Shown one piece after another: positions 28,294 to 63,749 of a stretch of 64,000 nucleotides of DNA. The notes beneath the pieces were generated by a model. The model saw only the letters and a list, made by a program, of their open reading frames with translations. It made no database searches and was not told where the DNA came from. Source of the stretch: Nautilus pompilius (lineage: Eukaryota > Mollusca > Cephalopoda > Nautilida > Nautilidae); the NCBI GenBank assembly GCA_018389105.1, contig JACATO010000589.1, positions 1,414,001-1,478,000 of the forward strand. Reading direction: 5' to 3'. Both the position numbers and the translations under genes were made by a program. Numbering within the stretch: position 1 is the first letter of the stretch; each line of letters starts with the position of its first letter.

Positions 28294-28592
<299 letters not shown>

Positions 28593-32015: not shown

Positions 32016-32137
32016 TGTGCGGCTTTCTTTACGTTCACCTGGTCATTTGGGAAATTCCTGTGCAAGTTCGTACATTACATGCAGAACGTGTCTATGATTT
32101 GCTCCGTGATGACTCTGACCGCTATGAGCATAGAAAG
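32016..32137 (+). CDS. Class A peptide-type GPCR, internal exon (ECL1-TM3)
   Basis: This exon encodes part of a seven-transmembrane neuropeptide or hormone receptor of the plasma membrane. It is flanked by a strong acceptor (TTTTTTCTTCAG) and a consensus donor (AAG|GTAAGT at 32138). The 122 bases give 40 codons plus two bases. They read a W-x-FG first-extracellular-loop motif (TWSFGKFLC), the conserved disulfide Cys 3.25 at residue 16, the TM3 run KFVHYMQNVSMICSV and TLTAMSIE. The last two bases (AG) need a G from the next exon to make Arg 3.50 of the E-R-Y motif. The exon at 63626 supplies exactly that, and C3.25 to R3.50 is then 25 residues, as it should be. By eye the joined segment shares features with TRH/ETH-type and kisspeptin/galanin-type receptors, but I cannot name the ligand. 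The larger open frame over this region is a different frame and is a shadow. Confidence 0.9.
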
Positions 32138-33059
32138 GTAAGTAGCCCTGCTGACTTCCTTGTATTTTATTGTCTTTTTATGCAGTACCTAGGCATTTGT
32201 GTCCACAATACATTTGCTACAAATGCTCCAGGAAGAAACACTTAGAAGGGAAATTAGCTGGACATTGCTGGTCGGTGTCTTGAATACCTACAAGGTGAGA
32301 GCGACTTAGGTCTGTACTAGGTGGCTAATCAGGGAATGAACTCCATGGAGGAATTTACCGCTAGAAAACTCCGCTTAAACTGTCTGATCCCAAACTATCA
32401 CGTGTCAAGGCATCATTATTTATCTCCAAAAAACGATATATGTGACATTTGTAGTGTTACGAAGAAATTTTATTTTCTAATTCTTAAGCGCGAAGCTGTC
32501 CCGATAAATAATATTAATTACCATCATGTGGTTTATCCGACACGACTGACGAAATACGAGACGAGTCTATTTGAGAAAATCTATTTAAACACCGCTTTTC
32601 TAAAGGACAAGCAACTTTTTGCTTTGTTTTTTTGAATGCGCTGTTCAACATGGCAAACTGTTATTTCAATAGTTTGCCGATTAAACATTTTATTTAATAC
32701 ATACATTTATGCACAAGACCTTAACTTGCGATTAACGAGCATAAAAGCTCAAATGCCAAACAGACAGTGAATAGACATTGGGAGAACGGCTGAGTAAAAG
32801 TGACGTCACAGCCTGTTATCAACATCTTTCGAACAGCTGACCTTCCCTTAGAATCTCTGACATCGGATTCCTGATTCAAAACCTTTTGGCTCTGTGCTGA
32901 AATAAACGAGTACCATTTGTTTTGCTGTTTGTTTTTTATGCAGAACTTCAGATTTAAAAGAAAACAACTCCGGCAGGTTTTCCGGTAATAACCACGCGAC
33001 ATGAATGACAGTATCAACAGCTTAACCGCTGATGCTGTATTTTGTACACCGGTGTCTAC
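32138..33059. other. Intron start, no separate gene supported
   Basis: Open frames at 32321-32635 (+, 104 codons) and 32721-33071 (-, 116 codons) have no recognisable domain. The latter begins right beside the promoter-like GC cluster at 33.1 kb. A perfect CRE (TGACGTCA) sits at 32801-32808. Confidence 0.35.
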
Positions 33060-33310
33060 AACGGAGGACAAGGCTGGTGAGGAAACGTAGTGTCTCGGTT
33101 GTCCGCTAGAGGGAAGTGTCTATCCCGCGCGAAAGGCCGGCACTTCCGACTTCGGCAGGGTAATCCCCACCAATGCTCTTTATTGTTTAGATACGGGAAG
33201 AAGGGGGAGGAAATCCATTCCGAGGAGATACGACAAACCAAGCGGAACCTGATTGGGCCACCGGAAGTGCTTTCACCTGCCTATAGATGCCGCTCGTACA
33301 TCGAGCAAGA
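33060..33310. promoter_or_regulatory. GC-rich, promoter-like transcription-factor site cluster
   Basis: A GC- and CpG-rich islet of about 250 bases in AT-rich DNA. It holds, in order, a CTCF-like CCGCTAGAGGGAAG (33103-33116), an E2F-type TCCCGCGCGAAA (33123-33134), an inverted ETS site CACTTCCG (33141-33148), a reverse CCAAT box ATTGG (33252-33256) and a forward ETS/GABP site CCGGAAGTG (33261-33269). Facing ETS sites with a CCAAT box resemble a TATA-less, possibly bidirectional promoter. It could serve an alternative or nested transcript within the receptor intron, or be a fragment of an unknown repeat. Confidence 0.35.
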
Positions 33311-33948
33311 GGCCGTTTCAGTCTATCTTTAATGGTTACATTAAAAAATAAAAGTACAACCTTTATACAGAATTTACATGTTCAACATCCATTCAGATGT
33401 AATATTTAACAATTACTACTTAAATAGGGCGCTTCATGTCACTAATTAAAACATTTCTTGCCTAACTATCTGGTTTATCGAAAAACTGAAAATAGTTAAT
33501 GCTGTCCTTAAGTATCTGCTGGATAAAAGAGAAAGAAAGTCCGTTGTCAGCGGAAAAGGAAAAGAAAAATCGAATATTAATTTCTTTAAATTGTCAGATA
33601 ATCGATAAGGTTAGTATAAAAGACGTTAGTATTTCTTTCATGGTTAATTAAAATAAAAGATATTAAAAGGCCGGTCAGAAGTGGAAAGACAAGCAAGCGT
33701 CTGTTTTTCTCTAAATGTAGAATAAATTCTCCCGTAATATATATTTATATATTGTAGAAGATGCTCTACTCGTCATGTGTACACAGGTCTCTGTGATTCA
33801 CCGCAGCTTACATTTATATAGGTGCGAAGACAGGCCTAGTCTGGGAACTATTGTGTTTCTTAAGAAGTAACCGAAATATTTAGTTTGTTTTTAACGAATC
33901 TTTGCGAGAACCTCCACTGTAAATTTCTGAAGGATACACGAGCATGAA

Positions 33949-34413
33949 ATGGAGCAGATTCAGATGAATGTTTGCGCTGTACACTATGCAAGCAATCTGA
34001 TGTGTTACAGCATCAACATATTGTACTTGTACTGTGTATTGTCACATTTTTCGTTATCAATAGATTCTAGTTACTTTTGCCATCCCTCTGCGCTGTACCT
34101 GATTGTAACAATTAGAAAAAAAATAATAACAGTTCCCAATACACTAAATTTCTCTTATTTAACATGGCGCATGAAAAGACAGAGAATTTTTCTGCGTCAC
34201 TTCAGCTGGCTACTGCTAAAGCGCGTCACTAATGCGGATTTAACCCTTTCATTTTATTCATTACCATGTGTCAAACAACCAACCATCCAACGAACCACTG
34301 AAATAAAATATTTAGGCCGCATCAGCTCGTGGCGTCACCTGGTAACGATTGACTTTTTAAAAACTTCTTCGAAGCATTTTAGCGAGGAGAGAGCAAAGAA
34401 AAGACTTCGTTAG
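33949..34413 (+). CDS. Hypothetical open frame, 154 codons
   Basis: An uninterrupted ATG-started frame with two hydrophobic stretches near the N-terminus and a basic C-terminus (FSEERAKKRLR). No domain, homologue, signal peptide in the usual place or splice context is evident, and base composition is only slightly less AT-rich than the flanks. A frame of this length is borderline for chance in this window. Confidence 0.15.
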   Translation: MEQIQMNVCAVHYASNLMCYSINILYLYCVLSHFSLSIDSSYFCHPSALYLIVTIRKKIITVPNTLNFSYLTWRMKRQRIFLRHFSWLLLKRVTNADLTLSFYSLPCVKQPTIQRTTEIKYLGRISSWRHLVTIDFLKTSSKHFSEERAKKRLR

Positions 34414-36123
34414 GCGTCAGTTTTGAGGGAGATTACCGTTTATCACTGGTCAGGGTGCACTATTTTATTATTAGCTCTGCTTATATATTTATGGGTGATG
34501 ATTTAAAAGCCCATTTAAAAGTGATATATTTTACGATAATTACCCTTATAATACGGGCCACCAAGGTAGATGGCCAATTTTTGGTAATGTACAAGAGCGA
34601 AGGATTGTGGTAACCAAATTATTTCACTGCTTCGCCAATGTCATGAACGTTTGCCTTTTTCACCGCATGCGAAGTCAGCCTTGCCTGCCAAAGCTCCAGT
34701 GAACCCCAGCCTTTCACATCTTTTAAAGTACTAGGTGGTTCGCTCAGTGGAAGCTACCGGTGAGAGATTTAAATAAAGGCGTCGGCCTTTTCTGATGGAA
34801 AAATAGATATTGGACATTTTCTTGAATAATAGCGGTTTGTAGTCTCACAGATGAGTCGGGGATTTACTAAATCACATAATAACTGGATGGACATCGGTTC
34901 GAGAAGAAAAGGTTAGAAGGGTTTTTGAATGTGTCTAATCACATAAAGCACCGCGTAGTTTTTGAAATGCTGTTAACAAGTTTTTGATATGGAAGTAAAA
35001 TAAACAGATGTCTGAATACCGACTTTTATATATCCAGAATACGCTACAACTGGCCAGACTTTCAAGCAAGTTGCAGCTTAGAAATGTGGAATGGATAGAA
35101 TTTGACTTGATTGGATCTCACAGAGCTGACAATGAACTTCATTATTCACTCATTGGAGAGTTCTAGCCAATTTGCACCAGCAATTCAATGAATGCCGAAA
35201 CCTTTGCGTCAAACCAGAATTCTGTCTCTATTAATAATCTAATATATTTCAATCTTAAATATCTACAAGTTCTACACGGTGCAATAAGTTCTCTTACCAA
35301 ATAGTAAAAAATGACTTTTCGACCAATGATTGTACATATTGAGGTTGTTTAAATTATTCCGGAAAATTTTTTTTTTATAAAAATTAAACATCTGATAGGC
35401 AATTAATTATTTAATTTTATAGTGACATTTTATTAGTAAACTACTGATGTTGTTCACGTTGATGTTTCACATTCTAATGTCTCTCAGTAAATAATATTAT
35501 TTGACTTAATAATATTTTTACCAGTTAGAAAGTTTGTTTTTCAAATTAAGTGCATTACCAGTTTAGTAAAGTATTTGGTTCAGATTAGTTTAATTTGAAA
35601 TGCCTGTTACTTTCCTTTTATACTCTTTATACTGTTGCAGTTCTGTTCATAAAATATTAACATTAAGCCAAGCTGAAATTTGAGATCTGTGACTCCTATT
35701 ATTTATGATCCTAGAAAGTCACAGATAATTTGACTATATCCACATCCGTAATACTCTTAGTTATTTTTGTGAAATCCCACATATTTCTTCTAGAAGATCT
35801 AATACCTCAAAAGTAGATAAATCTAACAAAATATCGGAGTTTTAAAGAATAATGTAAAATCTTGACTTGTGGATTGAATAATGAAAATGGAAACTGTAAA
35901 ACATTATGCATCTAAGGATTATATTTAATAATTAGTCTAACGTATTCTATAAAAATAGGATATCACACCTAATCAGTAATTTAATCTATTGTTTAAGAAA
36001 AGAGCCTCATAATTAATAGAAGTACATTATTCGCATTCCATGCTCTAAACTATGTGCACATCGCTTTAATTTTTCGAACGTGTAACGTTTTAATCTAAAA
36101 CTTTTTCCCGGACTTATACTCAG
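34414..36123. other. Intronic AT-rich DNA
   Basis: No gene or known repeat was recognised. Confidence 0.4.
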
Positions 36124-36252
36124 GAATGACGGCTCTTACTGGCACTTTACGCTGCACGTGAAGGCAAATGATAAATCGATTCTGTCAGTTACTCCAGAAA
36201 AATTAAACATTACGACTCTGGAGCAGAGAAAATCTTTCAATAACATTGAGCT
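36124..36252 (+). CDS. Candidate internal exon, 129 bp, phase 2/2
   Basis: A strong acceptor (CTTTTTCCCGGACTTATACTCAG, ending 36123) is followed by 129 bases and a consensus donor GTAAGT at 36253. A second good donor, CAG|GTAAGT, lies 10 bases further on. One frame is open throughout: NDGSYWHFTLHVKANDKSIL, then SVTPEKLNITTLEQRKSF and NNIE. The other two frames stop early. The exon starts and ends in phase 2, like the receptor intron it lies in, so it could be skipped or included without a frameshift. Inclusion would put 43 residues into the E-R-Y motif and should destroy signalling, so it more likely belongs to another gene or is a poison or decoy exon. No domain is recognised. Confidence 0.35.
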
Positions 36253-39200
36253 GTAAGTGCAGGTAAGTCTTGCTCACCACTACAAGATATTCGGAGAAGA
36301 GCTAGTAAAACTTAGGAAAAATCTGCATAAAAGTTTATCAGCTGTCATTAGACGTACTTATGTACGGCCAAACCACCATGAGAGATTCGTTGCTTATTAA
36401 GATATATTCTCTAGAAATTCGCATTTGGATAATTTTATTTTAGTTTTATGCGGTGCATTATCAAAGAAACATCAACGGTTCTAAAATAGTTACCCAATTA
36501 ACACCTAGAAGTGCTTCAATAAAACGGTTTTGCAGACAAGGTAATCATTAATCGTATTAGCTAGAAACATTAACTGCAAGCCTACATAACCTCATTTCAG
36601 CGAGAAGCATATTTTAGGAGAATAGTATTAATACTTGAGATTATTTCTAAAAGCTGACGAAACAATTAGAATTTATTGTGAATATTAAACAGTGCTTCTG
36701 GAAGTGGCCTTAATTTGTATCAGCAATTTACTTTCTGCCACTTAGAAGGTCTGGATTAAAGTCTAAAAATAAAACATTTTTCTAAAATCATTTTAGCGTA
36801 GGTCAGATGCTATTTGTTGAAGAATGACAAATTTTATGATAAACGGAAAGCAGTATGGTTTATGAAAATAGAAATTCTGGATTATGAATAATCGCTTCAA
36901 GTTTTACGATATATCGGTTATTTTTTATTTATCTGATTCAAAGGAATGAAGTCGTAATTTCAAAGCAAATCCGTTGCAGAGAAGCTATTTCTAAGTAAAT
37001 TACCTAAGATATCGAGGTTTTGAAATAAAGAAACTTGAAGAATGATTAAATATCGTAATCAAGTAGATTTCAAATAAAATGAATAGTCAGCCTTAAGACT
37101 TCAAGCTTAAAACACGTAATTAAGCAATACGATGGATAATAGATCGCTGTTTTACCATCTAGTTGATTTAGATATTTAATAAACTTAGAAAATGATATTT
37201 TCTCTTCGTCCCTTTTAAATTATATATATATAGTGTTTTAATTTGTCGAAAATTCCAAAGCTAAAAATCTATACATTCAGCCCAAGATATTAGCAGCCAA
37301 AACTCGTAGCATCACACAAATCTTGTTACGTGTGTGCGGTGTAGTACCGTGTATTAGCACAGGGAGAGTGCTATTCCGCAGGCTTAAATGAATCAGTAAA
37401 AACCACCGAAACAAATAAAAGAGAGCAAAAACATTACAATTTCTTCCATATATTAACGAAAGGCAAAAATAAATACCGCCGTTCGGCATCTAAAGGAGAG
37501 AACAAAGATTGTGGCATTTTAAATAATAATTTTAAAATGTTCACTACAACTGAAAGTTTGTTGTTTTTTCGCTTTCATGGGCTATTTCTATAAAATTGTT
37601 GAAAAACCTGAAACAATCGATAAAGTCATGATCATTTATTTTCCTTGGTGCCATAAATAATCATTTGATTAACTTTACGTAGCACGTGAATGACAAATGC
37701 AAAGTACAGGTGGCTTTCTTTTTCTCTAAGGCACTTGGGAAAGAGCAAGAAATGTACTTTTTGTCCGGTGAAAAAATCATTCGAGTGCTGATGAATTATT
37801 ATCTTGATGCTAGCACAAATAACTTGAAAAAAATTAAAATACAAATGTGGAAATTCAAAACACTCAGTCACTTCACTGATCTCCCAGAGAGCAACGGAAT
37901 TAGGTAAGGCAACGGAAAAGTCGTAAATTCAACTTTGATTAATAGAATTTAAAGGCTGACTGCAGCCATAAACATTAAACAAAAATAAAAAAATGATCTG
38001 TAAAATATGATTGATTGCTTCATAAAAATGTGCTGGAAGCGGTCACCTCCGCGATCAAACGTCATATACATAAGTTTTATGGTGCCTTTGAATGTCCGCT
38101 AGATGTGTCAGAAAACTTAAAATTTGAAAATTTTTTTGAAGTTGCTTTTAATGAAATATATATCAATCAGTCTTGTTCAGTTTTACGAATGTGCTCAAAA
38201 TTATTGCATCAACCAAAATATGTTTGATTTTTAAAGTGCAACTAAAGCAAGGTTAACTTTAACCAGTTTGTGAGTTATTCTCTATGTATTTGGTTTGCTA
38301 ATCAGCAAACTTTACTTCGGAGAACACTGCAAGTGTGCATTCATTAATGTGTACTGTTTTACTACATCTCCACAAGAAATCAATGCATTAAGGAGGATGT
38401 TTAGCGCAAAGAATATGAATATCGAACAATGCCTAACTGTCTTTAGATTTAAAATACATTTTACAATGTAAGAAATGACAATTGCTGAATATTTTGCTTA
38501 AAAACATAAGGCACTGCAATAACATTGTGTTTAAAAAGTTTTACTTTACTTTTGTCTGCATTGAAACTGCAAAAACATTTACCTGCAAAATAAATAAATA
38601 TTTGTATTTTCAGCATCATGATAAATCTTTTTACATCAGGTGACACACAACGTCACATTGACGTTCAAGAGGAGTCAGCTAAAAAATATTGGTTAAAAGC
38701 AAAACAATAACTGCCTGTTTGTCATGCGGTTTTTAAAAAAATTTTTAATTTTCACAGGAATTTACGGAAACAGAAAAGAGTTGAAATAAAAAAAATATAT
38801 ACGAATAATTTTAAATGTCATGACAAGAAATTAAAAAAAAAATTTTAAATATAAAAAAATCATAAATAAAAAAATATATATATTTACAAAAATTTAGTAA
38901 TGATGAAAGTGCATACACACGCATATCAGTCAATACCACAACATTCAATTAAATAAAGGAATCAAATTTGAATAAAGGAACAATAATAATAACTAACCGA
39001 AAAGAAAGTGCCCAAGCTGATACACAACCTTTTTTTTTCTTATTTTTATAATAATAATAATATCCTTTTAAAATGTTTAATTTTGTTCAAATTAATAAAT
39101 ACAAATCGTTTAACATAAAAATTAGGCGAGATAATGTAGTAGACTAAATGTTTGCATTTTTCGCTTTTGACAGATACTCGTCATTTTTCAAACGTAATGT

Positions 39201-42200
39201 GTAAGTGTCTTCGGAATTACTTTTTGAAACAACTGTGAAAGATTCTTACGAGCCGGTTTCGTAGATTTATAATATTTAATTTTTAATTTAAAAAGTTTTA
39301 ACGCAATGTGTCGAAATTACACATTTTAAAATATAAAAAGTAAAAAGAAATCAATTCGTAAACAGCACCGTTTGGATATTTTTGATGAGTACTAAAATCA
39401 TTGAAATATTAAGTGTGAAGAAGAATATTTATTAAGCTTCCCACGAACTGAATATTTATCTCTTTTTATTTTTGTAATTATAAAAAGGGGATAAATAATG
39501 CATGAATACAAAATACGAGAGAATAAAATTTAACAAAATAAAATTTTTATGTCAATTTATAAAAATGTTTATTTTTTGTACATTGGGGTTATTTAAAAAT
39601 GATATAAATCTTGTATATATTTTTCTTTTATTAAAGTACTTATTATAAAGATTGTAATCTTGACTCTTATTTGATGTAAGATTATTCTCTATATATTTAA
39701 GATATTCAGGCGTCAGTTGGAAAATTTATGAAGTGTAGAACTTGTATACTACAGGAATAAAAATATCATTCATTTTAAGGAATAAAAGGCCTAGATAGAA
39801 TAATTCAAGAAAAGCATGCATCGTTTAATATTGTGTAATTAGAGGCCTGTTAGTTATCATTTAATGAAAAAACATTTTTGAATGTTCCACAAGGTGGCTA
39901 ATTCTAAAATCACCCCAGGAAATATGTTGATACTAGCTTTAGGTTTCGATCAATGAACACAAATAATGTAAACGTTAGCCTTGTGAATAGGATGTAATTA
40001 AAATGGCAGTTTTAATTAATTACCGTAAAATTTTATATAGTTAAACTTTCCTTTTATTGTTTTTCTTGTAAAACAAAACTCACAATTTGGTAGAAGTTAT
40101 ATATTACACATATATGTATATGCACTACAATTTTTATTATATGAATTAAACTAAATTCTTTGTTAAATATCAAATATATCTCGATTGATACAATTTGCCA
40201 TTTTAATTTAAGTGAAAAAGTTTTGAATTAAATGCAAAATAATTATGAACATAAAACACAAACATCTGCTGTTCAATACAATTACTAAATTTTAAAAGGG
40301 ATTACCCACAAGTAATTACTGTTTAAATATTTAATTATAGAATATGTTATTTAGAACTCTATTAAACAAATTAAGAAAAAACGATAATTCACCGATATTT
40401 TGTATAAATATCAGTGTCCATAAACAGCAACAACATATAATGTTGAATGTAACATGATAGCTTTATTTCATAACAGTTTATATTTCTATACCATGGGCAT
40501 TATTATATTTTCTAACTCAAATGTGTATACACATTTCAAAGGACAAATTTGTAAAATAAATTATGTTTAAAAAATAAGTTAATGATGCATTGGTTAAAAA
40601 TTACATAAAATCATGTAATTAAAAAAGCTATTTTACTTAATATTTTTATTTAGAGAAATGCGAAGAAAATATATGCTGTATAAATTTTAAGGTCTCCTGA
40701 CAAACCAACCAGTTGATTCCGGTATACAAGATGTGTATGAATCATTCTTTTCTATCTTTTTTAAAATTCAAATTAAACTAACGTCTTTTAAAAAATGCAT
40801 ACAATAGATTTAAAATCAAATTAATGTTTTCGATAGTTTTCGCTCCACATAATCACCAGTTTGCACCTTTATTCCTGTTAAATAGAAGAGCAAAAAATCT
40901 TTGAAATGTTCAGATAGGGAGTCTCAGTTTTCCGATTACCATTTAAAGCTACAGATTTCACTTTTCTGTCATTTTGTGGTTTTATTGATAATTTAGAATT
41001 ATCTGCTTTTATTTAACTTTCTATAATTTTAAAGTAATGATGATCTTTTGAAAATGAATAGGACTGTTTAAAAAACTGTGTCACTTTTCATATATTAACT
41101 TTAATGCCAGACTCGCAGAACCAAAATGCCATGTTTACTTGACCTTTTCACGCAGCCATCATAAGAGTAAGGATCTCAGAAGAACCGGTAAATATTCCTA
41201 GCAGCATTGATCAAGCAAATACGTATAAAAGTTCCTCTAGCTTGCTTCTAATTTACAACTGACAAACTTCCTGCACTAAATCAACCTAATCAGCATTTCT
41301 CCATCAAGTATAAGCTTGTAACAAACTCAGTCAGCTTCGTATGAGAAAATACATCATTGCACCGTCTATTGGAGACACTTTTCTGGAAACCAGTAAACGT
41401 TCAAACCAGATTTTCTCTTTTAATTAAGAAAAATTTGGCGAAGCATATCCTCTAACTGGGAAGCGCCGTGTCCATCATGGAGATGAATAGACAACGCTCT
41501 CTAGTGGCTAACGGCGACACAACGCACTTTCGCCAGGGTTATCTCCGTTTGTTGAAACTGATTTACGACATAACAACTGAAATATATTTTGAAAATCAAA
41601 AACACACTTTTAGGGAACGTAATAACAAGAAGTAGAATACACATAAGGCTTTTGTTTAAGGTGTATTAAATTAATTATGGAATTTGATTAGATGGGATAA
41701 AAAAAACCTTTTTATTTTAAATTGTAAAATAAGATAAACAAATAAATTTTTTTAAAATAAAAAATTAAAAGCTGATATTCTGTATGCATTTCTAATTATA
41801 ATATGTAACCGGAGAATTTATGCAAAAACACAAGTTCTGATGATGAATCTAGAAATAACCATAAATTTTATGGTGGATCTGTATAAATTGTTTACCTTTG
41901 TAACGTTAAACTTTGTTAAAATCAATGGCAAATTTTAGTATTATTAACCTTTTTTAATAAAGCTTTATTCAAAATTTCTAAAAAAGAATAATTATATTAC
42001 TATATATATATGCATTTTGAAATATCTTTTTTATTTGATTAATTTGTTTCCTGCAAGATGTATTACCTCTGTCAGTACCTAAAGAACGAACAACTTTACA
42101 TGCAGGTGATCAGTTCCGTTTTACTTCGTGAAAACACAGATGTTACATCATCGGTAGTAAGGGATATTCACTGACAGTGAAGCTAATTTTTTACAGTAAA

Positions 42201-45170: not shown

Positions 45171-45353
45171 TCCGACATTACAGTCATCACCCTGCCAGAG
45201 ATTTCGAAGATTAATTTCCGTTTCTCAGATGATCTACCCTCTTTCTGCTTTTCATTTAATTTAAAACCTGCAAATTTGGAAATGAAATTTACAGTCGAGT
45301 CGATAAACCCAACGATTATCAAATTGTTTGAATGCCACCCATTTCTTTTTTAA
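45171..45353 (+). CDS. Possible terminal exon of an unknown protein
   Basis: A long T-tract ending in CAAG (45151-45170) precedes 60 open codons ending in TAA: SDITVITLPEISKINFRFSD then DLPSFCFSFNLKPANLEM and KFTVESINPTIIKLFE. The alternating polar and hydrophobic pattern suggests beta strands. An overlapping minus-strand frame is also open, the acceptor base before AG is unusual (A), and no domain is recognised. It may be chance. Confidence 0.2.
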   Translation, partial: SDITVITLPEISKINFRFSDDLPSFCFSFNLKPANLEMKFTVESINPTIIKLFECHPFLF

Positions 45354-53630: not shown

Positions 53631-53631
53631 T

Positions 53632-53650
53632 TGTGTGTGTGTGTGTGTGT
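53632..53650. repeat. (GT)n microsatellite
   Basis: A short run of GT dinucleotides at the left edge of a GC-rich block. Confidence 0.9.
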
Positions 53651-54060
53651 TGTGTGCGTGCGCATCTCCGGAGAGAATGGGGAGGGTAACGAGGCGAAAC
53701 CTCAGTGGATCGAAGTCCGCGTTGGAGACAAGCTGCGGTCAGGGCCGAAACCCTAAATGGAGGCGTTACGCCTCCATCTGTTGAGACCAGACAAGATCCG
53801 AGGTCTGACCCCAAAAGCCGAAATGTCCTGACGTTCCACGGGGCGGAGCGATTATCCCTATGGCGGAGATTCCACCCAGTGACCGCTTCCCCAGCCGAAA
53901 CCCTCAGGGAGGAAGCCTCGGCGTGCTCAGTCCCCGATACGGTCTGCGTTAGCGCCTAACCCTTCCCAGCCAGATGGTGGGCCCAGGGAAAAAATCGTCC
54001 CTCGCCTCCACCCTTGCGGGCAGAGGGCTTTACTAGCCTCTTAGTTGGCGTTCGGATAGC
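53651..54060. other. GC-rich block with small hairpins, unclassified
   Basis: About 400 bases that are far more GC- and CpG-rich than anything nearby. The motif GCCGAAACCCT occurs twice (near 53744 and 53892), and variants GGCGAAACCTC and GCCGAAATG occur too. Several are bracketed by short complements (GAGG..CCTC, AGGG..CCCT). A perfect 8-bp stem TGGAGGCG-TTA-CGCCTCCA lies at 53758-53776. Multiple frames are open because stops are rare in GC-rich DNA. It may be a retroelement 5' region with structured RNA, an unknown GC-rich SINE or a CpG islet. I see no reverse transcriptase. Confidence 0.4.
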
Positions 54061-54989
54061 AACAGTAATAAAAATGAGTTTTGACCGGTGATGTATTCAA
54101 TTCCTAAGTTACAAGAAAAAGCAACTTGCATTATTTTCACGAAATATCCCTATTCACTTACCTGTATAAAAGCTAAAACAGAGGCAGGTGAGGCCAGAAG
54201 CATTATTTTAACTGTAAGGTGCTGTGGGCGTTGACGAAACTAATCTAGAACTAGTGTGAAACGTTTGAGATGTGCGTCAGCGGTATTCGGCCCAGGACTG
54301 ACTTTGTGTGCTTTGCAAAGTAGGATAGCAATTGTTAATATTTTTAAGGTAAATCATGATTAAAAAAAATTTCTTCTACTGATCATAGCATTCAAGTCTC
54401 TGAGTTTTCTTCTTTTATATTAGAAACATGACGCACACGATAATATGTTCAAACCAAGTCAGACAAATACTGTTAGATTTGAATGCAACCAAACAGACCG
54501 TTAATATTTCTGGCAAAATAACTGATTATAATAGCCGTTTTATACAGTATTGATTTGATAAATATCTAACTCTCATTGTATGGAAAGAAACTTACAAAAA
54601 CGTAATCGGAAAGAATCTTTAAAAGAACAAACTGCCCCAGTGACAAGTGATTGGATCATTAACTTCTTTACACTCGAAGGAGACCAGGCAACATTTGGGT
54701 CATGGCTCCCAAGTATTCGCTGCTGGTTTTTGCTAATCTGATTCAAATGCAGATTTTATTATAGATGATGTCTTTGCCTATTTATAGTGTTCTTAAGAGA
54801 TCAAATGCTTAATTAGAAATATTTTTTTTTGAATTTATTCTTTTACATTCCTTTTGTACCAAACCCAAGTGTATTGTCTTTAGGATATGCTCCTATTTTT
54901 TGAGAAATATACTGATCTTCCTTTTTCCTAATCTAAGCTTAACATATTATTCAATGATTTAAAAAGTTTTTTTTCCAACTTCTACAGCT
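54061..54989. other. AT-rich intronic DNA
   Basis: Nothing recognisable. Confidence 0.4.
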
Positions 54990-55770
54990 AGAATCGAACA
55001 TTTAGATGTGTTGATTCAGGTCTTTAAAAAAATTAGCATACTTTTGTGTCATATTCACGATGTTGTGTTTTCCCATCATTAAGTCGAATAGCAGGATAAG
55101 GTCAATGAGAAAGCAGGCTTTCACTTCTTCTAAACTGAGAACTACGTTTGAGCGCTTTCTTGATAATCGAATTACCTCAGGGCAACTTCCTGTGCTTTTC
55201 CAAGTCTGATACATCTTCCAAATCTCTTGTTTGGTTCAGTAACCCTGTAAATGAAGTAATTCACTTTACACCTGTACTCTAATGCTCATGGCATCATGTA
55301 CACAGTAGCATGACTGTCAAGGCCCCGGTTTTGTCTTTTTGTGTATTTACCCAAAGCTAAAGAAACATTGTATGACGACAAAATATGATCTTGTGACTGT
55401 CTTTCTCCACATAGAAGAGACATTTCATCTGCTATTAACACTGAACGAGGTTTACTTGTGCTGGAATCAGATCGTAGGTAACTCTAATAAAGTTACTAAG
55501 TCGTATAGGGACTAGATGTCATTCCATATCAAAAATTTGTGGAAAGATTTCTTCCATGTTGTCCAACGGTTTTGTTTGGGTTGTTACACAATCTTTTAGA
55601 GGCGCATGTTACTTTAATTTTGCCTAATCCCATGAATGACTTTCTCTCTTTGCTCTTGGATAATCTTTTGATCGTGGCTTATTAGTTTCACCATATCCAA
55701 ATCCTCCTCTACTGGTTTGAAAGTGTCCTATCCCCTTCTTTCAGCAACAGTGATTGCTTCGATCTTTCTA
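54990..55770 (-). pseudogene. Unrecognised decayed coding relic
   Basis: Consecutive minus-strand segments read as protein with several frame changes. About 55740-55630 reads DTFKPVEEDLDMVKLISHDQ then KIIQEQREKVIHGI. About 55480-55290 reads SDSSTSKPRSVLIADEMSLL, CGERQSQDHILSSYNVSLAL, GKYTKRQNRGLD and YMMP before a TGA, then resumes as ALEYRCKVNYFIYRVTEPNK. About 55214-55002 reads MYQTWKSTGSCPEVIRLSRK and then FLIDLILLFD. Codon content is better than in the flanks. The mix of open segments, stops and shifts looks like an old transposon or retro-copied gene, but I recognise no family. Confidence 0.3.
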
Positions 55771-56791
55771 TAGCTGTACACATCTTACATCTAAGACCAG
55801 TTCTAAGGTTACAACTGTTTTACATTGGCAAGGATAAACAAATCACTTGTTTTGTTTAATTTTCCTTTGCTCTCTGTTGAATAGAACTATAAGTAAAGGG
55901 CCTCATCTGGTCACAACAAAAGCCACATTTGTCTGTACACTAGGTATTGTAATATTATTGTTCCATAAAATGAATGTACAATAAAAAATGTAATGGCCGA
56001 AAATATTTTAGTATTTCTGGTTCTCAAAAATGTATCTAACTTAAATTGCAACACAAATTAAAGTTTCATTTTTATTAAAATTGGGAAATTAAGCGTTGTT
56101 TTGATATTCATATGATCCGTGTGCTAAACATCTTTTACATAAGGATTTTTGCTAGGGGTGGGATAATGAAACAGTACATTTCAATAAATGCTCACCTCAC
56201 AACATTGATTTCATTTAAATATTATTTCTTTAAAAGGCATAAATACAAAAATCAGAACAACAACAAATGATTAAAAAATTTTATTAATCGTGGAATAATT
56301 ACAATTGAGTAACTATAAAATCGGAATTATTTAGGATGATGCAATAATAGTGCTGGGGTTAGGCCATTAAAAAGGGCATCTTTCTGTACTTTTCTCAAAA
56401 CAAATTTCGCTTTTAAAAGGAAGATTCTCCTTTATTTAAAGGAACAGATGACCATTCTAACAGAAACTATTACTGCAGTTAGAATAAATTCGTTCGCTAA
56501 ATTTTATTAACAAGCTGCCTTACTATACTTCTACACAACACAAATTTGGTAACTGATTTTACTTTTCTTTTTATTACCATTCGAACATTTTCAGGCAACA
56601 TCACAGTTTTCGATTTTACAAAAACGCCACAAACGGCTTCGTGTTAGTCTCATCTCTGAACAACCGCTGGTGTCCAAAATGGTCTAATAAATGGCGTCTC
56701 TATTGGTTCAAATCTCGCTTTAGAAAAGCTCAAAACACGCAGTGATGGCTTTCAAAGTATCGATATAAAAAAATGTAATTATTTTTGTGTA
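55771..56791. other. AT-rich intronic DNA
   Basis: No gene recognised. Near 56680-56710 AATGGCGTC and ATTGGTT (YY1-like and reverse CCAAT-like) lie close together. Confidence 0.35.
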
Positions 56792-58046
56792 TTACGTCGT
56801 TATAAACGTTCTGTTGGTTTTTATATTATGTTAATTTGAGGTTTATTTTAGCATACTTGTGATGGTGTATATAGATAAGTTATATATCGTTTTGTAGTAT
56901 CTGCTTTCTCATACATTATGCTAACTTATCTTTTAAAAAATCATAAAATGGATATTTGTTTCAGGGTTCTGAATGAAGCGTGGATAGAAAAGTCTTTCGT
57001 GTAATTTTGCTTCACGAGTTCAAACCAGGCCACAAAGTGAGCGAGGAAACTCGTAACGTTAAGAAAGCATGGGGCGAGTACACAGCAAATGAGCGCACAG
57101 TACAAGGATGGTTTGGAAAGTTTCGATCAGGAGATGTGAGCCTCGAAGTTAAGAACGTATCGGACGTCCTTCCAGCTGTGAGGACGACCGTCTTAAAGCT
57201 CCATTTGAAGCCGATCCAAGAAAAACTGCGAGAAATTGCTGGAGAACCTGACGAAAGCATTGCAAATGTTTCTCGGCATCTTCACGCAATCGGCAAAGTG
57301 AAAATAGCTTGACAAGTGGGTGCTTGAGGAGTTTGATGAACAACAACGAAATCGACGATTGGAGATCTGCTCTTCGTTTGTAATAAGTAACAAAAACGAT
57401 CCATTTCTTGACCGAATTACGTGTGATGAAAAATGGATCCTTTACGACAATCGCAAACGTTAAGCGCAGTGGCTCAAAAGAGACAAGGGGCCTAACCACA
57501 GTCTAAAACCCAGTCTCCAGTCAAAGAAGGCCATGGTCACTGTCTGGTAGACTGAAACTGGTGTTATCCACTATAACGTCTCGCAACCTGGCGAAACAAT
57601 TACAGCTGAAAGGTACTGTTGTGAATTAAATGTTGTTCATCAGAAACTCTCCAAACAACAAAGAGGCCCAATCCTGCTCCACGACAGCGCTCTCCTTGTT
57701 CCAAAGGTGACTATTCAGAAACTGAACACTTTGAATTACGAAGTTCTCCCTCATCCAGCCTATTCGCCAGACCTTTTTCCCCACAGACCACCACCTTTTC
57801 AAATACCTCGACAGCTTCCTCCGTATGAAATCCTTCTCCAACCAAACAGCAATTGAAACTGCTTTCCAACAGTTTATCGACTCCAGAAATCCAGACTTTT
57901 TTTTACAAAATGATATAAATGTACTCATTGACGTAAGTGTCTGATTGTAATGGAACTTACTTTGATTAATAAACTTCACGTTCAGCAACGATATGAAGTC
58001 TCACTGTTGCCTTAAGAGAACCAATAAATGGTATGTAACCACCTAA
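56792..58046 (+). mobile_element. Full-length but inactive mariner transposon, copy B
   Basis: A 1,255-bp element flanked by TA (56790-56791 and 58047-58048). The left terminus TTACGTCGTTATAAACG pairs imperfectly with the inverted right terminus TTAGGTGGTTACATACC (58030-58046). The paired-type DNA-binding domain is well kept at 56980-57312: VILLHEFKPGHKVSEETRN, NERTVQGWFGKFRSGDVSLE and ANVSRHLHAIGKVK, then a TGA. Further on come TCDEKWILYDNRKR with the first catalytic Asp (near 57420) and then a stop, VTVW and TITAERYC, ILLHDSA with the second Asp, and SPDLFP followed one frame over by TDHHLFKYLD with the third Asp position. AIETAFQQFIDSRNPDFF is the C-terminal part. Stops and shifts inactivate it. 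It is the same family and nearly the same length as the copy at 9464-10719, with better N-terminal and catalytic-block preservation. Confidence 0.92.
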
Positions 58047-58429
58047 TAAAAGGTGATTAGTAATATTCGTTTTCAAAAGGGATCATAAATGATACCAATA
58101 TGGGTCAGAACTGTGACGTCAGCGTTGTTCATTAAGTGAGAATGCCAAACAAATTAGTTATATTCAAAGATTAGTAAATCTAAACGATGTACCACTAAGG
58201 TCATTAATGTTTTATAGCTGCTAAATGCGAAGTTATCTAGAAACAGCAATATTTCAAAAAATTGTTCACCAATATTAATTAAAATTTAATAGAGATTTAC
58301 TGCAATGGGTAAAGTTATCGTACAGCGCTAAATCAAACTTTAAAAGCGAAATAAAGATTAACTCGCGATGAATAAAGAGAAACAGAAAATGTGAAAAGAG
58401 GGTGGATGCAAAATTGTCAAGTACATTGG
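58047..58429. other. Short AT-rich stretch after the mariner
   Basis: Contains one perfect CRE palindrome TGACGTCA at 58114-58121. Nothing else was recognised. Confidence 0.4.
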
Positions 58430-59175
58430 TTTCAGATGGGCAGTGAAGCAACTAGCAAAATCTAGCAGAGATTGGGTGACTGAAGTTATACGCCGCCAGA
58501 TGATGGTGAAGCCTTGGACTGCAACAGAGCTTGGCCTCCTGTCAGATGGCGCGCCGGCTCTAACATGTCTTCTGATGAACTAAGCCGACCCCAGTAGCGT
58601 CACAAGTATTCCAGAAGCTCAGTGAAAGCCGCATTTTATCCAAGGACTCGGTGCGACGTTTACCACCATTGGTCGCTATCGAGTGGTGGCGATAGCAGTA
58701 ACTCCCCCCCCCCGGATGGGTCGTCCCACTGCCTCCTTTCTCTTTTCCTGCTGTCGGAATTCAGAACCAAATTTCCGCCTGTCTTTCTATCAGCGACTTT
58801 CAAAATTTTAAAACCCCGATTAAATAGTTTTCCTTATTTTAGCCCGACTTCTATTATTTTAGAGACACTTACATGACTGTGGGTCTAACCCCTTCCTCCA
58901 AACTTAAAATGAGAGAAAAAATATATGGTTTTTCATTTTGTTTTCTTATTTTTTTCAAAATCTTTCGGTTGAATTGGCTTGTATTTTTTTTTTCTTATAA
59001 GAGTGCGAATAAGTCGAAACAACAAGGTCTCCCCCGCCAAACCGCGCCAAGAAGGTTTGGAGATGATCCTGTGCCTCGCGTCCGTGCTAGGAATTCCGGG
59101 AAGCAATTACGAAGAATTAGATGAAAGTTAAGGGCCAAATATCTTTGCGCTGGCGGCCAATTACTGCGCAGGTAA
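58430..59175. other. GC-richer block of unknown nature
   Basis: Less AT-rich than its flanks. It holds a partial CTCF-like CTGTCAGATGGCGC (58539-58552), an inverted repeat GCTATCG..CGATAGC (58675-58681 with 58690-58696), a run of ten C residues (58704-58713) and CTGGCGGCCAATTACTGCGC (near 59150). Several frames are open on both strands with no recognisable domain. It could be a degraded retroelement or a regulatory region. Confidence 0.3.
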
Positions 59176-59966
59176 AAGCTCTGAGTCAATATTCGTCTTG
59201 TTAAATCGGAGTTTATTACTAACAAAGAATAAATAAAGCATTAAAACTCCACATATAAATTAAGCGAGTGGTCACGTTCTGTCAATGGTTTGGTGAATAA
59301 AATTGTCTTTAGTAAGAAGGAACGTGTGGCAGTCTATTGTTTCTTTTATATCTTAACCATGGAAGTTGCAAGCATCGTTTTTTAATGAAGCCGCAGCGAA
59401 AAGAGGAGAGGGATAACTTATGTAGATATCGTTGATTGTGTAGTCAGTTTATAAAGAAAACAACTCTAAGCCATTAATTCTAGGTGTTGGGCTGTTGCAT
59501 CTACGCGTTCCCAAACTTAAATATTCCTGACTATAACACGAATTAAAAGCTTTGCTTTATACGCCATATTTTTCCCCTTTTCGGTAATAGAGCAGTAAAA
59601 CCCTTGAAACTTGTACTGTGGCAATGAGAGAATGAAAACATCCGCTCGTTAAATTAGCGAAAGGTCTGTAAAGTAGGAAGAAAACTTTCCGGGTAAGAAA
59701 CACGGAGCTGACTCTTTCGCTGTCGATACAATCACCTGAAAAACGCTTAAGAGGAATGAGTCAGTTCGGCGAAACTATCACAGAAATCAGTAGGAAAGTT
59801 TGCAAATCATAGGCAGATGTTGTCATTTCAGAGTAGAGCCGGAACATGTAGTTTTACATCGCTTTATAATTTTTCTTTAAAATACGGTATAATGAGTACG
59901 AGAAATACAGGTAAAGGAGGGTGGGGTTGAAAAATATCGCGCGTTCATCACCACGTCGCTCGACGT
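59176..59966. other. Intronic DNA
   Basis: No gene or known repeat was recognised. Confidence 0.4.
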
Positions 59967-60208
59967 TCACTCTAGTCCCTGAGTGACGTAACTTCCGATG
60001 AAAGCGGGGCTCCATTCAAGTCGATATGTCGTATTTCTATCTCCTCCTGTGGGACTCGAATATTCGTCATGTCCTTCCTGGTGAGGTGGCTTCTCATTTG
60101 TTGTATCGCTGACGGGTGGGGGCAATGATTCGACTTTACAACTCTGGGGTTGGGGAAGTCTACACGTGTGGCTACGATTATTTCCTCTCCACAATATCGA
60201 TTTGTCAT
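59967..60208 (-). CDS. Coding-looking segment open in two minus-strand frames
   Basis: Two overlapping minus-strand frames are open for more than 70 codons and both look protein-like. One reads SCKVESLPPPVSDTTNEKPP, then HQEGHDEYSSPTGGDRNTTY and SPAFIGSYVTQGLE before a stop. The other reads VVKSNHCPHPSAIQQMRSHL, then MTNIRVPQEEIEIRHIDLNG and APLSSEVTSLRD before a stop. The composition resembles a disordered cytoplasmic tail. CTTCCCCAACCCCAG near 60150 (minus) could be an acceptor just before the segment. Base content is clearly higher in GC than the flanks. It may be the last exon of a minus-strand gene nested in the receptor intron, perhaps with 61330-61695. No domain is recognised. Confidence 0.3.
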
Positions 60209-61329
60209 ACATCCAGAAAAGAAAAGTGTTTAAATCCCAGAAATTTGGATTTCTCTTGTGACTATGTCTATTTTTTCCATTGATAATAATAGTCACTGTT
60301 ATTCGACCAGTTTTTAATTAATAACTTTGAAAAGATACAAAAAGCAATCCATTATGATTTATATGAACACTGGTTAGAGTTCCTAATTAAATTTGCATCT
60401 TCCGGCATCAGATAATTACTGTTTTCTTAGCCAGTGTGTCATGTTCTATTTAGTACAGCTGCATCTGCAAATATTAATTTTAAAGCAAATAAAATAGTTG
60501 TTTTTGTTACTTTATTACATCTAATAATTATAAGTATTAAAAATTGTAATTGCTTACGCATTGTGGACTTTTTCATTAAGGATACCGTACACGGTGTAGC
60601 CAAAAAAAATTTCTTTCTTTTGTTTTTCAGATATAATCTAGTAAAAAGGATTATAAGGAAACTTTCATGTTCCAGTAAATTTAATTACCTTTCCTAGAAT
60701 GCTCGTTGGGGCAGTAAATGCTTATTTGAATTTTAATAAAGGTATCCCGAATCTGCAATGAATGCATTCCGGTATTTTAAATGCAAATGACATTTGAGCA
60801 TTATAAAAGGCAAACAGGGTTAATTATGTACGTGGATGAATTAACAATTAAAATCATTGCTCTGTATTTTTTCTAAAAATTAGTCTTATAAAATTATCAG
60901 TAATATTTTTTTCAGGTGAAATGCTTTAAAGAGCGAGTTCTTTTTTAAAAAAAAAAAAACACCTGATAAATTGAAATTTAATATTTGCTGCAGTGCGTCT
61001 TCTTGAGAGTTAATCTTTTCTGGATGCGTTGCTATGGTAACTTATTTCTAAATTAAACCGATGATTTATCAATACGACAAAATGTACAATAATAATAATA
61101 TGCCACTTCGTACATCGATTTTGAATTATTCTTCTGTGCTAAAAGAGCAGCGACCACTTCGGTGAAATCATGGTGAGTTTTCATTTATTTGCATTTTTTT
61201 TCCCCGATCTTTTCCCGCAGCTGACAGGGGTAGATTTACTGTCGTCCCCCCTCCCACACACACACACACACGCACGTGAAGAAGAGAACAGACTTTCGGA
61301 GAGGTCCAGGGAGCCCTCCTGGGCACTTT
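60209..61329. other. AT-rich DNA between two coding-looking segments
   Basis: An 87-codon frame at 60434-60697 (+) is AT-rich and without motifs. A pyrimidine- and GC-rich patch lies at 61200-61330. Confidence 0.35.
61255..61271. repeat. (CA)n microsatellite
   Basis: A short run of CA dinucleotides. Confidence 0.85.
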
Positions 61330-61695
61330 CTAGCTAGCCGTAATTTCCGGTGTACGATTCCCGATACACGCTAAAGGCTCAACTTGGACGATTCCAGTGA
61401 GTTTGACAGAATTTCCGGTGTCTGTCGGATAGTGTAAAACGAGGCCAGGGTTATTATACGGTCTGGAATTTTTTTCCACAAATTTTGCTTTTGTATTCAA
61501 ATTAATCAGAATGAAATACCGCAAATCGACACACGGCTCGTTACAGTTACTGTTCTCTGCTGGTTGAACAGCGTCGACACTATAAGAGCAACTCAAATTG
61601 CTTGTAACATTTATTTTAATGATAATTATCCCCTGTTTTATAATTATTATGTGGCGTTTGAAATTGAGATTTTCTTCAAATCGTATATTTTTCAA
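61330..61695 (-). CDS. Candidate exon of an extracellular-type protein
   Basis: An open minus-strand frame of 121 codons. The first 30 residues are AT-rich and probably intronic. From about residue 31 the translation looks real: NVTSNLSCSYSVDAVQPAEN, then SNCNEPCVDLRYFILINLNT, KAKFVEKNSRPYNNPGLVLH, YPTDTGNSVKLTGIVQVEPL and ACIGNRTPEITAS, then TAG. It has N-glycosylation sequons (NVT, NLS, NRT) and four cysteines, as in an extracellular domain. No clear consensus donor precedes the stop, so it would be a last exon. I recognise no family. It may form a minus-strand gene with the segment at 59967-60208, or be a separate relic. Confidence 0.33.
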   Translation of the reverse strand: MKNIRFEENLNFKRHIIIIKQGIIIIKINVTSNLSCSYSVDAVQPAENSNCNEPCVDLRYFILINLNTKAKFVEKNSRPYNNPGLVLHYPTDTGNSVKLTGIVQVEPLACIGNRTPEITAS

Positions 61696-62440
61696 ACTGA
61701 AAACGAATTCTCCCTAATCCAATCCAATTCTGAGAGTCACCACGAGTCTCGATATAAAACCCGAGAAAGCGTCATTGAAAGTGTTTAAAATATATCATCA
61801 AAAGAAAGACTCTAGCATTGAAAAAAGTCTCTTTTTGTTTGTTCTGTATTTAATATCAATAAACTGTCTGTACACGTTATTTATTTAATAGTGTTAATAA
61901 TAGATGCAATATTTTTTTCCCCCTCTGTCTGAGAGTGTATGCGATCACGTGATGCCGTTCGCGGGAATGACGGTATTTACGTCATTATACCAGAATTAAA
62001 ATTACAACGACACGGCTATTCATCAAGTATATATATAATAAGTAATTATATTTAACCGTTTTGCTAGTTTTATTTTTTTTTCTTTCACTGTAATCTTATA
62101 GGTAGATTATTCGGTGCGGAAGGTGGCCGGCTGACTTATTACGTTCGTGTGAATGTTTTGTGCGAACTTTCGACAACCCCCTGCTAAAAGTGGAAAGCAT
62201 ACCGCGGTTTATTTACTGAAAATGCGAGTTAATACATTCCTGGCACCAACTATCAGCATACCTTTTATTTTTTTGCTTCTTCCGGGATAGGGGGTAGAGT
62301 TCTGGTTACGATACCGCTCGAACTCATCTTAGACGACTTACAGGAATTCTATAAGTTACCAAAACCTATTCATTGCTCCGTTGTCTTTCTCTCTGTCGAC
62401 TTACACATTAAAGTCCGAAATAAAGACCGGCTGGTTATAT
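61696..62440. other. Intronic DNA
   Basis: AT-rich for the most part. No gene was recognised. Confidence 0.4.
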
Positions 62441-62800
62441 GCAGGAACTGGCTCAAGAGGGCAGCCGCAGAGGAGTGTAGCGTGCTAAAGCCGGGTTGTT
62501 CTTCCAGAAGCGCTGGCTCGTGACTCCTCCAGCGAAGTGCGTTAGGTTCCCTGCGTGGGCACACACCAAAGATGTGACATCACCAAACGGTTCTATGCGA
62601 ATGCGAATTAACCAGAAAATGGTACACGGTTTGTCTGTGACACAGGGCGGAGACATTATGTCGGTAAGAACTCTGGGATAAAAATACCGCACTGAATATT
62701 CGAGCGGGGCCGCTCAATCAGTTCAATCAAACTAGACAGAACCTGACACAATAACCCCTCACCCCTCCCTTTTCCAGGGTCTGGTCCCTAAATGTCCTTA
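62441..62800. other. GC-richer block with overlapping open frames
   Basis: Minus-strand frames at 62370-62564 and 62453-62692 and a plus-strand frame at 62496-62681 overlap. The minus frame reads SPPCVTDKPCTIFWLIRIRI then AHAGNLTHFAGGVTSQRFWK. On the plus strand GACATTATGTCG|GTAAGA (near 62660) resembles a donor. With three frames open and no domain, this may be an unclassified repeat as easily as an exon. Confidence 0.25.
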
Positions 62801-63084
62801 CTAATGAGCTCTAGATGAGTGAAAACGTTGAACACACAACGGCAGTTATAAACAGTCAGTCAAAAACCAAAAGAAAAATATCCAGGAGGTTTTCAATACA
62901 CTTTTCGTTTGACAAACAATAACCATGTCGACAATGAAACGTATTATATTATAATCTGCATTACTTTTCTCCTTCTTTAGCGAAACCGCGCACCGACATC
63001 AAAACTCCACCAGAACAAAGACCCTGGTGGCAGTTTCCTAAACCAACGAATAGAAGACGGCGTGTAGTTGTGAGCTGTACGCCT
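62801..63084. other. Intronic DNA before the SINE
   Basis: Nothing recognisable, except that the minus-strand frame derived from the neighbouring SINE extends into it. Confidence 0.35.
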
Positions 63085-63270
63085 ACCACAGGTAGTCCCT
63101 ACTATAGGTCTATTTTTGGGGGGGATACCGAAATATCCGGAGAAACCCACGCGGCCGGCTGGAGATAAAGTGCGAGAAGAAACTCTGCTACGGAAGTACA
63201 CCGACCGAGATTCGAACTCGAACCCTAGATCTCGGCGATCCAGCAGTCTAACCAAAGGCCGTATTAAAAT
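63085..63270 (-). mobile_element. tRNA-headed SINE, inverted
   Basis: On the minus strand the head has an A box, TGGTTAGACTGCTGG (63254-63240), and a B box, GGGTTCGAGTTCGAATC (63225-63209), spaced as in a tRNA. The body follows, with CAGCCGGCCGCGTGGGTTTC and TCCGGATATTTCGG, then a C-run and AAAAATAG. The tRNA-like part is not flanked by a plausible acceptor stem, so it is a SINE head and not a tRNA gene. The 98-codon minus-strand frame at 62977-63273 is a by-product. It lies about 360 bases before the TM4 exon of the receptor. Confidence 0.65.
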
Positions 63271-63625
63271 CACGCGAAGATTTATTTTATAACAACGTTT
63301 ATAATGTTAAAATGTGAACATACTGAACACTGTAACTAACAAAGTACCTAATGCAGACTTACTGGGTGATGCCATAGCTCTTGTTAAAGAGAAAATCTCA
63401 ATACATAAAAACTAAGCAAGGAAAATACAGAAATGTTTACTTCCGTATTGGACTTTTATATAAACCGTTTCTTTTGTTTTGGATTACCATCTGACAGACG
63501 TTATGTAGTTAAGCAGAAGAATTTCATGATGTCGAGTTTTATTATAAAACATCGGTCGGAACATCAGCTTAACTGATGCGTTTTGCGAATTTTTCTAACG
63601 TGTGTTTTGTCTTAATTATTTAAAG
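63271..63625. other. End of the receptor intron
   Basis: AT-rich, ending in the acceptor TTAAAG before the TM4 exon. No other feature was seen. Confidence 0.5.
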
Positions 63626-63749
63626 GTACGTGGCCATTCTACATCCCCTCCGAGCTAAGTACCTGTGCACCATAACCCACGCCAGGGTAGTGATTGTCGT
63701 TGTGTGGGGTCTTTCAGTCATAATGGCGTCACCTATTTTGGTTGGTCAG
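63626..63749 (+). CDS. Class A peptide-type GPCR, internal exon (ICL2-TM4)
   Basis: The exon is 124 bases. Its first base completes the Arg codon of the E-R-Y motif left open by the exon ending at 32137. It then gives 41 codons: YVAILHPLRAKYLCTITHAR, then VVIVVVWGLSVIMASPILVG and Q. Diagnostic residues are the P of ICL2 (HPLRA), the basic ICL2/TM4 entry, Trp 4.50 and the Pro near the top of TM4 (ASPIL). The donor is CAG|GTAAGT at 63750, phase 0. HPLRAKYLCT..A resembles the same stretch in TRH- and ETH-type receptors, and TLTAMS..R....PLRA resembles kisspeptin-type receptors, so the exact subfamily is open. The open frame that continues past the donor to 63833 is intronic. Confidence 0.9.

What the first reader, a model, noticed from the sequence alone, without database searches (positions are those of the whole stretch)
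32016..63749. A neuropeptide-type GPCR reconstructed across a 31.5-kb intron that splits the Arg of the DRY motif
Two small exons with good splice sites, missed by simple ORF listing or read in the wrong frame, join precisely. The AG|G split codon gives Arg 3.50, C3.25 to R3.50 is 25 residues, and W-x-FG, E-R-Y, P (ICL2) and W4.50 all fall in place. The subfamily cannot be fixed by eye: it shows TRH/ETH-like and kisspeptin/galanin-like features at once, so it may be a poorly described invertebrate receptor.
Basis: partly seen in the sequence, partly recalled or inferred. Interest (0 to 1): 0.75.

Follow-up and report, generated by a model that had tools for sequence, protein, structure and literature searches.

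The report
Elevenin receptor gene, probably chambered nautilus
The two exons are real and belong to an intact, long gene for a brain-hormone receptor of a known type (the elevenin receptors) in a mollusc, probably a nautilus; it is an ordinary member of its family, although the gene sits in an interesting cluster of three sister receptors.

Summary
Exons 32016-32137 (122 nt) and 63626-63749 (124 nt) have GT/AG borders, join in frame across 31,488 bp, split Arg3.50 of ERY as AG|G, and are the only two of 2,916 open frames in the window that score well against a family profile; their profile ends meet. Flanking DNA shows they are coding exons 2 and 3 of a six-exon gene (R1; 460 aa, 98 kb, introns 37.0, 31.5, 22.0, 4.1, 2.4 kb) that runs beyond both window ends. 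The subfamily can be fixed: R1 falls in one family (100/99 against five vertebrate receptors) with deorphanised elevenin receptors of Nilaparvata, Aplysia and Platynereis, not with TRH, kisspeptin, galanin or QRFP receptors. Database names for its relatives (QRFP-like, galanin, AstA, CCK, GPR54, opioid) are inconsistent. R1 is the first of three elevenin-type receptor genes (+, -, +) within 480 kb of one contig; all three share the DRY-Arg intron. The genome (727.6 Mb, cephalopod-like) is probably Nautilus pompilius; it also holds what looks like the C-terminal exon of an elevenin peptide. DRY introns are common in class A GPCRs. New member of a known kind.

The parts
1..32015 (+). 3' part of intron 1 (37,033 bp in all). 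Coding exon 1 (start codon, N-terminus, TM1-TM2) lies upstream of the window at window -5368..-5018 = contig C566:1408632-1408982
   Evidence: tblastn of relatives and GT/AG join, phase 0
32016..32137 (+). coding exon 2: end of TM2/ECL1 to Arg3.50 (CAAFFTFTW...AMSIE|R), phase 0 in, phase 2 out
32138..63625 (+). intron 2, 31,488 bp, splitting the Arg codon of the ERY motif as AG|G; holds mariner-type transposase remnants
63626..63749 (+). coding exon 3: end of TM3/ICL2 to end of TM4 (R|YVAILHPL...SPILVGQ), phase 2 in, phase 0 out
63750..64000 (+). start of intron 3 (22,026 bp in all). Exons 4-6 lie beyond the window: 85776-85978 (ECL2-TM5), 90051-90186 (ICL3), 92613-93059 (TM6-TM7, C-terminus, stop) = C566:1499776-1507059

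Best explanation
The two exons are coding exons 2 and 3 of an intact six-exon gene for an elevenin-type neuropeptide receptor (R1, 460 aa) in a cephalopod mollusc, most likely Nautilus pompilius. Proposed working: the 98-kb coding span is spliced (the 31.5-kb intron falls in the DRY Arg codon, as in many class A receptors); the seven-helix receptor with its Tyr/Asp-rich N-terminus binds elevenin, a short peptide with one disulfide bridge, and signals through Gq to inositol phosphates and calcium. Shown here: gene structure, family membership by sequence and tree, two paralogues on the same contig, and an exon that looks like the C-terminal part of an elevenin in the same genome. Inferred: splicing in vivo, ligand, Gq coupling, species name.
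For: Complete open frame over six GT/AG exons with consistent phases 0,2,0,2,0. Best relative is Octopus P0005: 69% identity, E 2.2e-179 (best 120 of 318 listed). In the tree all 50 family rows stand apart from the 5 vertebrate rows (100/99), and these 50 include Nilaparvata A42 (P0086), Aplysia 'elevenin receptor 1' (P0132) and Platynereis 'Elevenin receptor 2' (P0145). R1 is 44.2-44.5% identical to each of the three, against 26-32% to six human receptors (different methods, MAFFT and BLASTP). Elevenin activates three Aplysia receptors with EC50 of 1.2-25 nM in an IP1 assay (PMC10175484, sections read). Elevenin-like exon: RFVFAPVCRGVAA-KR behind a CAG acceptor at C1771:6409.
Against: R1 sits in a molluscan subclade (21 rows, weak support 81/55) that holds none of the three receptors named as verified in my tree. 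That Aplysia apElevR3 belongs to this subclade is inferred from its non-Tyr DRY motif alone. Invertebrate sister families (CCHamide/EP, leucokinin, ETH, trissin, AstA receptors) were not in the tree. The N-terminal half of the elevenin peptide, with its first Cys, was not found, and the peptide match has an E-value of only 0.73. No expression data.
Confidence: 0.87

Rival explanations
1. R1 is a molluscan paralogue that has moved to another ligand: a member of the elevenin receptor family by descent, but an orphan by function.
For: It lies in a molluscan-only subclade apart from the three named verified receptors. In this subclade 15 of 15 non-cephalopod rows have lost Tyr3.51 and two of them also Arg3.50, a sign of changed signalling there.
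Against: R1 itself keeps ERY. apElevR3, which by its motif belongs in this subclade, answers to elevenin at 3.1 nM (PMC10175484).
Confidence: 0.12
2. R1 is a TRH/ETH-, kisspeptin-, galanin- or QRFP-type receptor, as the first reader or the database names suggest.
For: Joined 82 residues hit human GALR1 best in the PDB (65.7 bits); many orthologues are named QRFP-like, galanin, GPR54 or AstA.
Against: Full length: 340 bits to Nilaparvata A42 against 152 QRFPR, 150 CCKAR, 137 GHSR, 132 KISS1R, 124 GALR1, 121 TRHR. Vertebrate rows stand apart at 95/95, 100/100 and 100/99 in three trees. ETH receptors were not tested.
Confidence: 0.01
3. The two exons are decayed pieces of a pseudogene or a chance join.
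For: Very long introns with transposon remnants.
Against: All six exons open, splice sites present at all five introns, motifs intact, 69% identity to octopus; only 2 of 2,916 open frames score well.
Confidence: 0.01

Closest known systems
Octopus orthologue P0005 (named 'pyroglutamylated RF-amide peptide receptor', Octopus bimaculoides)
   Same: Sister of R1 at 100/99; 69% identity over 85% of R1
   Different: The name: automatic annotation as an RF-amide (QRFP) receptor; 31% of aligned residues
Aplysia elevenin receptors apElevR1-3 (PMC10175484; apElevR1 = P0132 by its name)
   Same: Same family and class A motifs; Nautilus-like R3 groups with apElevR1 (100/98)
   Different: R1 and R2 lie in the other molluscan subclade; they keep ERY where apElevR3 has Asn for Tyr
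Nilaparvata lugens NlA42 (P0086), elevenin receptor in body-colour control
   Same: 47% identity, E 7.4e-110; same family
   Different: Arthropod branch; one receptor described (PMC10175484)
DRY introns of class A GPCRs (PMC3151243)
   Same: Intron in the Arg codon of DRY, same phase
   Different: Nothing new that I can point to; the length, 31.5 kb, was not compared

Membership tests
Class A (rhodopsin-like) GPCR | Significant match to 7tm_1 and the TM3/TM4 motifs | tested here: met
   82 aa: 79.6 bits against a cut-off of 30.5; full length aligns to CCKAR over residues 65-394
Elevenin receptors | Groups with deorphanised elevenin receptors apart from vertebrate peptide receptors | tested here: met
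   100/99, 50 of 50 family rows against 5 vertebrate rows, three named verified receptors inside; 100/100, 51 against 6 rows
Elevenin receptors | Groups with them apart from invertebrate sister families (CCHamide/EP, leucokinin, ETH, trissin, AstA) | not tested
   No verified sequences of these families were fetched
Elevenin receptors | Activated by disulfide-bonded elevenin at nanomolar dose, Gq/IP1 | not testable with these tools
   Needs a cell assay
Elevenin receptors | Ligand gene in the same genome | tested here: inconclusive
   C-terminal exon RFVFAPVCRGVAA-KR at C1771:6409-6454, E 0.73; upstream exon with the first Cys not found in the first 6.4 kb of that contig
TRH receptors | Closer to TRHR than to other families | tested here: not met
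   26% identity, 121 bits, the lowest of six human receptors
ETH receptors | Closer to ETHR than to other families | not tested
   No ETHR sequence fetched
Kisspeptin / galanin receptors | Groups with KISS1R/GALR | tested here: not met
   KISS1R 132 bits, GALR1 124 bits; they group with each other, outside R1's family
QRFP receptors | Groups with QRFPR | tested here: not met
   152 bits, 29%; outside the family (dropped); only pieces of QRFPR were used

The most novel reading that the evidence does not exclude
Molluscs inherited a chromosomal cluster of elevenin receptors, kept compact in this genome as three genes in 480 kb (+,-,+). One subclade (R1/R2 type) lost the DRY Tyr, and in limpets even the Arg, in every non-cephalopod sampled (15 of 15), while cephalopods kept ERY (6 of 6). 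The cluster would then be a natural series of one ligand's receptors with normal and altered G-protein switches.
Probability: 0.35. Interest if true: 0.45.

Novelty: new member of a known kind. Interest (0 to 1): 0.25.

Why it matters
It turns an unresolved exon pair into a complete, testable gene and corrects a scatter of misleading names (QRFP-like, galanin, AstA, CCK, GPR54, opioid) on one protostome receptor family. The three-gene cluster gives a cephalopod reference for the question, left open in PMC10175484, of how many elevenin receptors molluscs have; and the DRY variation in one subclade is a test case for how class A receptors signal without the canonical motif. The intron itself is not a surprise.

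Tried and rejected
Rejected: TRH-, kisspeptin-, galanin- and QRFP-type assignments; trissin receptor, my own first guess from memory, dropped when verified elevenin receptors came up, not tested; pseudogene or chance join; a nearer TM4 exon. The short-segment PDB search pointed to galanin receptors and was misleading; full length put CCKAR and QRFPR first, at about 158-162 bits.

Led nowhere: Rfam at gathering thresholds (no match); a search for the N-terminal exon of the elevenin peptide in 6.4 kb of C1771; a pattern search for that exon and a search with Biomphalaria P0044 for a further receptor type did not complete, so absence of that type from this genome is not shown. Structure prediction was not run: R1 is a join of exons and a 7TM fold was not in doubt. 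The joins among long vertebrate branches are unreliable, as the tool warned.
Full report
OBSERVATION. They are 122 and 124 nt, phase 0 to 2 and 2 to 0, with GTAAGT donors; the junction codon is AG|G. Joined, they score 79.6 bits to Pfam 7tm_1. As a chance control, a profile of 24 family members was run with filters off on all 2,916 open stretches of at least 15 codons in the window, both strands: these two score E 2.3e-24 and 3.9e-20 and meet at profile position 142; the next has E 0.049. No rival TM4 exon was found in the window.

THE WHOLE GENE. The window is C566:1414001-1478000 of an unnamed 727,640,739-base genome in 2,558 contigs. With 100 kb on each side and tblastn of 29 relatives I found the remaining exons: -5368..-5018 (start, TM1-TM2), 85776-85978 (TM5), 90051-90186 (ICL3), 92613-93059 (TM6-TM7, stop), in window coordinates. 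All five introns are GT-AG, phases 0,2,0,2,0, of 37,033, 31,488, 22,026, 4,072 and 2,426 bp; protein R1 has 460 aa and its coding span is 98,428 bp. So the 31.5-kb intron is the second longest of five. The start codon and the ICL3 acceptor are my choice by homology and phase; non-coding exons were not sought.

WHAT IT IS. R1's best relatives are molluscan, with octopus P0005 at 69% identity (120 of 318 hits listed). The relatives' names disagree: QRFP-like, galanin, AstA, CCK, GPR54, opioid, cannabinoid-like. Among them are sequences named after deorphanised elevenin receptors: Nilaparvata 'Neuropeptide GPCR A42' (P0086), 'elevenin receptor 1 [Aplysia californica]' (P0132) and 'Elevenin receptor 2' of Platynereis (P0145). 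That NlA42 is the planthopper's elevenin receptor I take from passages of PMC10291777 and PMC5818035 and from PMC10175484; the primary papers were not seen. Against six human receptors R1 scores 121-152 bits, against NlA42 340 bits. Three maximum-likelihood trees (59, 57 and 55 rows; 50 relatives were picked by hand from 131 fetched proteins for the first) separate the family from the vertebrate rows at 95/95, 100/100 and 100/99. For one search I dropped eight rows (human TRHR and GHSR, Gordionus, Frankliniella, flea, Tetragonisca, Tetranychus, Tachypleus b) and added six (R3, P0132, P0145, P0146, P0147, fish GALR2a P0168); for I dropped human QRFPR and Capitella P0146. Vertebrate branches are long and their mutual order is not reliable.

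THE CLUSTER. A tail-to-tail neighbour R2 lies on the minus strand at window 188747-138352 (429 aa; exons 291, 122, 124, 203, 130 and 420 nt; same phases; DRY intron 35,455 bp). A whole-genome search with R1 (111 matches) shows a third, R3, on the plus strand of the same contig: exons at 1799339-1799620, 1839314-1839435, 1844985-1845108, 1856866-1857068 and 1888325-1888723, ICL3 exon not located. Its DRY intron is 5,549 bp. Exons 2, 3 and 4 have 122, 124 and 203 nt in all three genes. The cluster spans C566:1408632-1888723, 480 kb. In one search no place outside C566 matched R1 at more than 47% identity (short matches), and those over 150 or more residues were 21-35%, which I read as other GPCR families; the tool scores only its best candidates, so a further divergent member is not excluded. 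R1 is 52.5% identical to R2 and 57.8% to R3, the latter without its ICL3 exon. R1, R2 and R3 each join octopus sequences first (100/99, 100/99, 100/100); R3 groups with Aplysia elevenin receptor 1 (100/98).

HOW IT WORKS. PMC10175484 (abstract, the whole results section and the first part of the discussion read) shows that disulfide-bonded elevenin activates apElevR1, R2 and R3 with EC50 of 25, 1.2 and 3.1 nM by IP1 assay in CHO cells, without added promiscuous G protein, and that elevenin without the bond does not. Its authors suggest that each of the three might be a separate molluscan clade. By descent the same is expected of R1; this is inference. In this genome the Aplysia peptide finds one place (E 0.73, 75% identity over 16 residues): behind a CAG acceptor at C1771:6409-6454 an open frame reads RFVFAPVCRGVAA-KR, like the C-terminal part of an elevenin with a dibasic cleavage site. 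The E-value alone is not significant; the residues conserved in the family at an exon border make it credible.

DRY MOTIF. Of 51 family rows aligned (counted), all 30 outside the R1/R2 subclade have Tyr3.51. In the subclade 6 of 6 cephalopod rows have it and 15 of 15 others do not (Phe, Asn, Trp, Leu, Val; Lottia P0011 and Patella P0012 also have Lys for Arg3.50). apElevR3 has Asn there (Fig. 6 legend), so I place it in this subclade by motif. The subclade's own support is weak (88/82, 81/55).

THE INTRON. Introns in the DRY motif, in the same phase, are recorded in many vertebrate class A receptors, GALR2, tachykinin, NPFF, endothelin and TRHR2 receptors among them; whether they are ancient or repeated insertions is debated (PMC3151243, passages and section 13). 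So the split Arg is a known trait. Its presence in R1, R2 and R3 suggests that here it predates the duplications.

SPECIES. Inferred: each receptor's nearest relatives are octopus genes, and the assembly size of 727.6 Mb fits the 730.58 Mb of Nautilus pompilius (PMC8257504, passages). No species marker was tested.

LITERATURE ON NOVELTY. Searches for 'elevenin receptor' (19 papers), 'elevenin'+'cephalopod'+'receptor' (13) and 'elevenin'+'Nautilus' (1; its passages concern peptides and libraries) listed no title on cephalopod elevenin receptor genes or a receptor cluster. Most of these papers were seen as listings only, and subscription journals are not held.

Noticed in passing
contig C566:1408632-1888723 (window -5368 to +474723): Three elevenin-type receptor genes R1(+), R2(-), R3(+) within 480 kb, with identical lengths of exons 2-4 and the same DRY-Arg intron (31.5, 35.5, 5.5 kb).
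   Followed up: yes
relatives listed: In several molluscs two or more family members share the same 'longest contig' length (Gigantopelta 3, Babylonia 4+2, Patella, Solemya, Littorina, Pinctada, Octopus vulgaris P0009+P0033 two each), which hints at linkage on one chromosome. Against it: Ostrea edulis P0072/P0095, one of three in Saccostrea echinata, and Octopus bimaculoides P0005/P0065 differ. Clusters may mix species or isoforms.
   Followed up: partly
family alignment: Tyr3.51 of DRY is lost in 15 of 15 non-cephalopod rows of the R1/R2 subclade, and Arg3.50 is Lys in the limpets Lottia (P0011) and Patella (P0012), while 6 of 6 cephalopod rows keep ERY.
   Followed up: partly
G000 C1771:6409-6454 (L034 from nt 1509): Exon like the C-terminal part of an elevenin peptide, RFVFAPVCRGVAA-KR, behind a splice acceptor; the N-terminal half was not found in the first 6.4 kb of the contig.
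   Followed up: partly
window 10130-10528 (+), 56977-57312 (+), 57551-57856 (+): Mariner/Mos1-type transposase remnants (Pfam Transposase_1, HTH_48) inside introns 1 and 2.
   Followed up: no
window 859-1473 (-): 204-codon open frame with no Pfam match; from memory it resembles a repeated protein of uncertain nature common in spider and squid genomes.
   Followed up: no
window 22871-22992, 28294-28592 and beyond the window 85708-85752: Long ATT/TTA repeats, the last one ending about 23 bases before exon 4.
   Followed up: no
G000 C2019:1176410-1177225 and C2314:1030149-1030964: Two GPCR frames with equal score and length; perhaps a recent duplicate or an unmerged haplotype.
   Followed up: no
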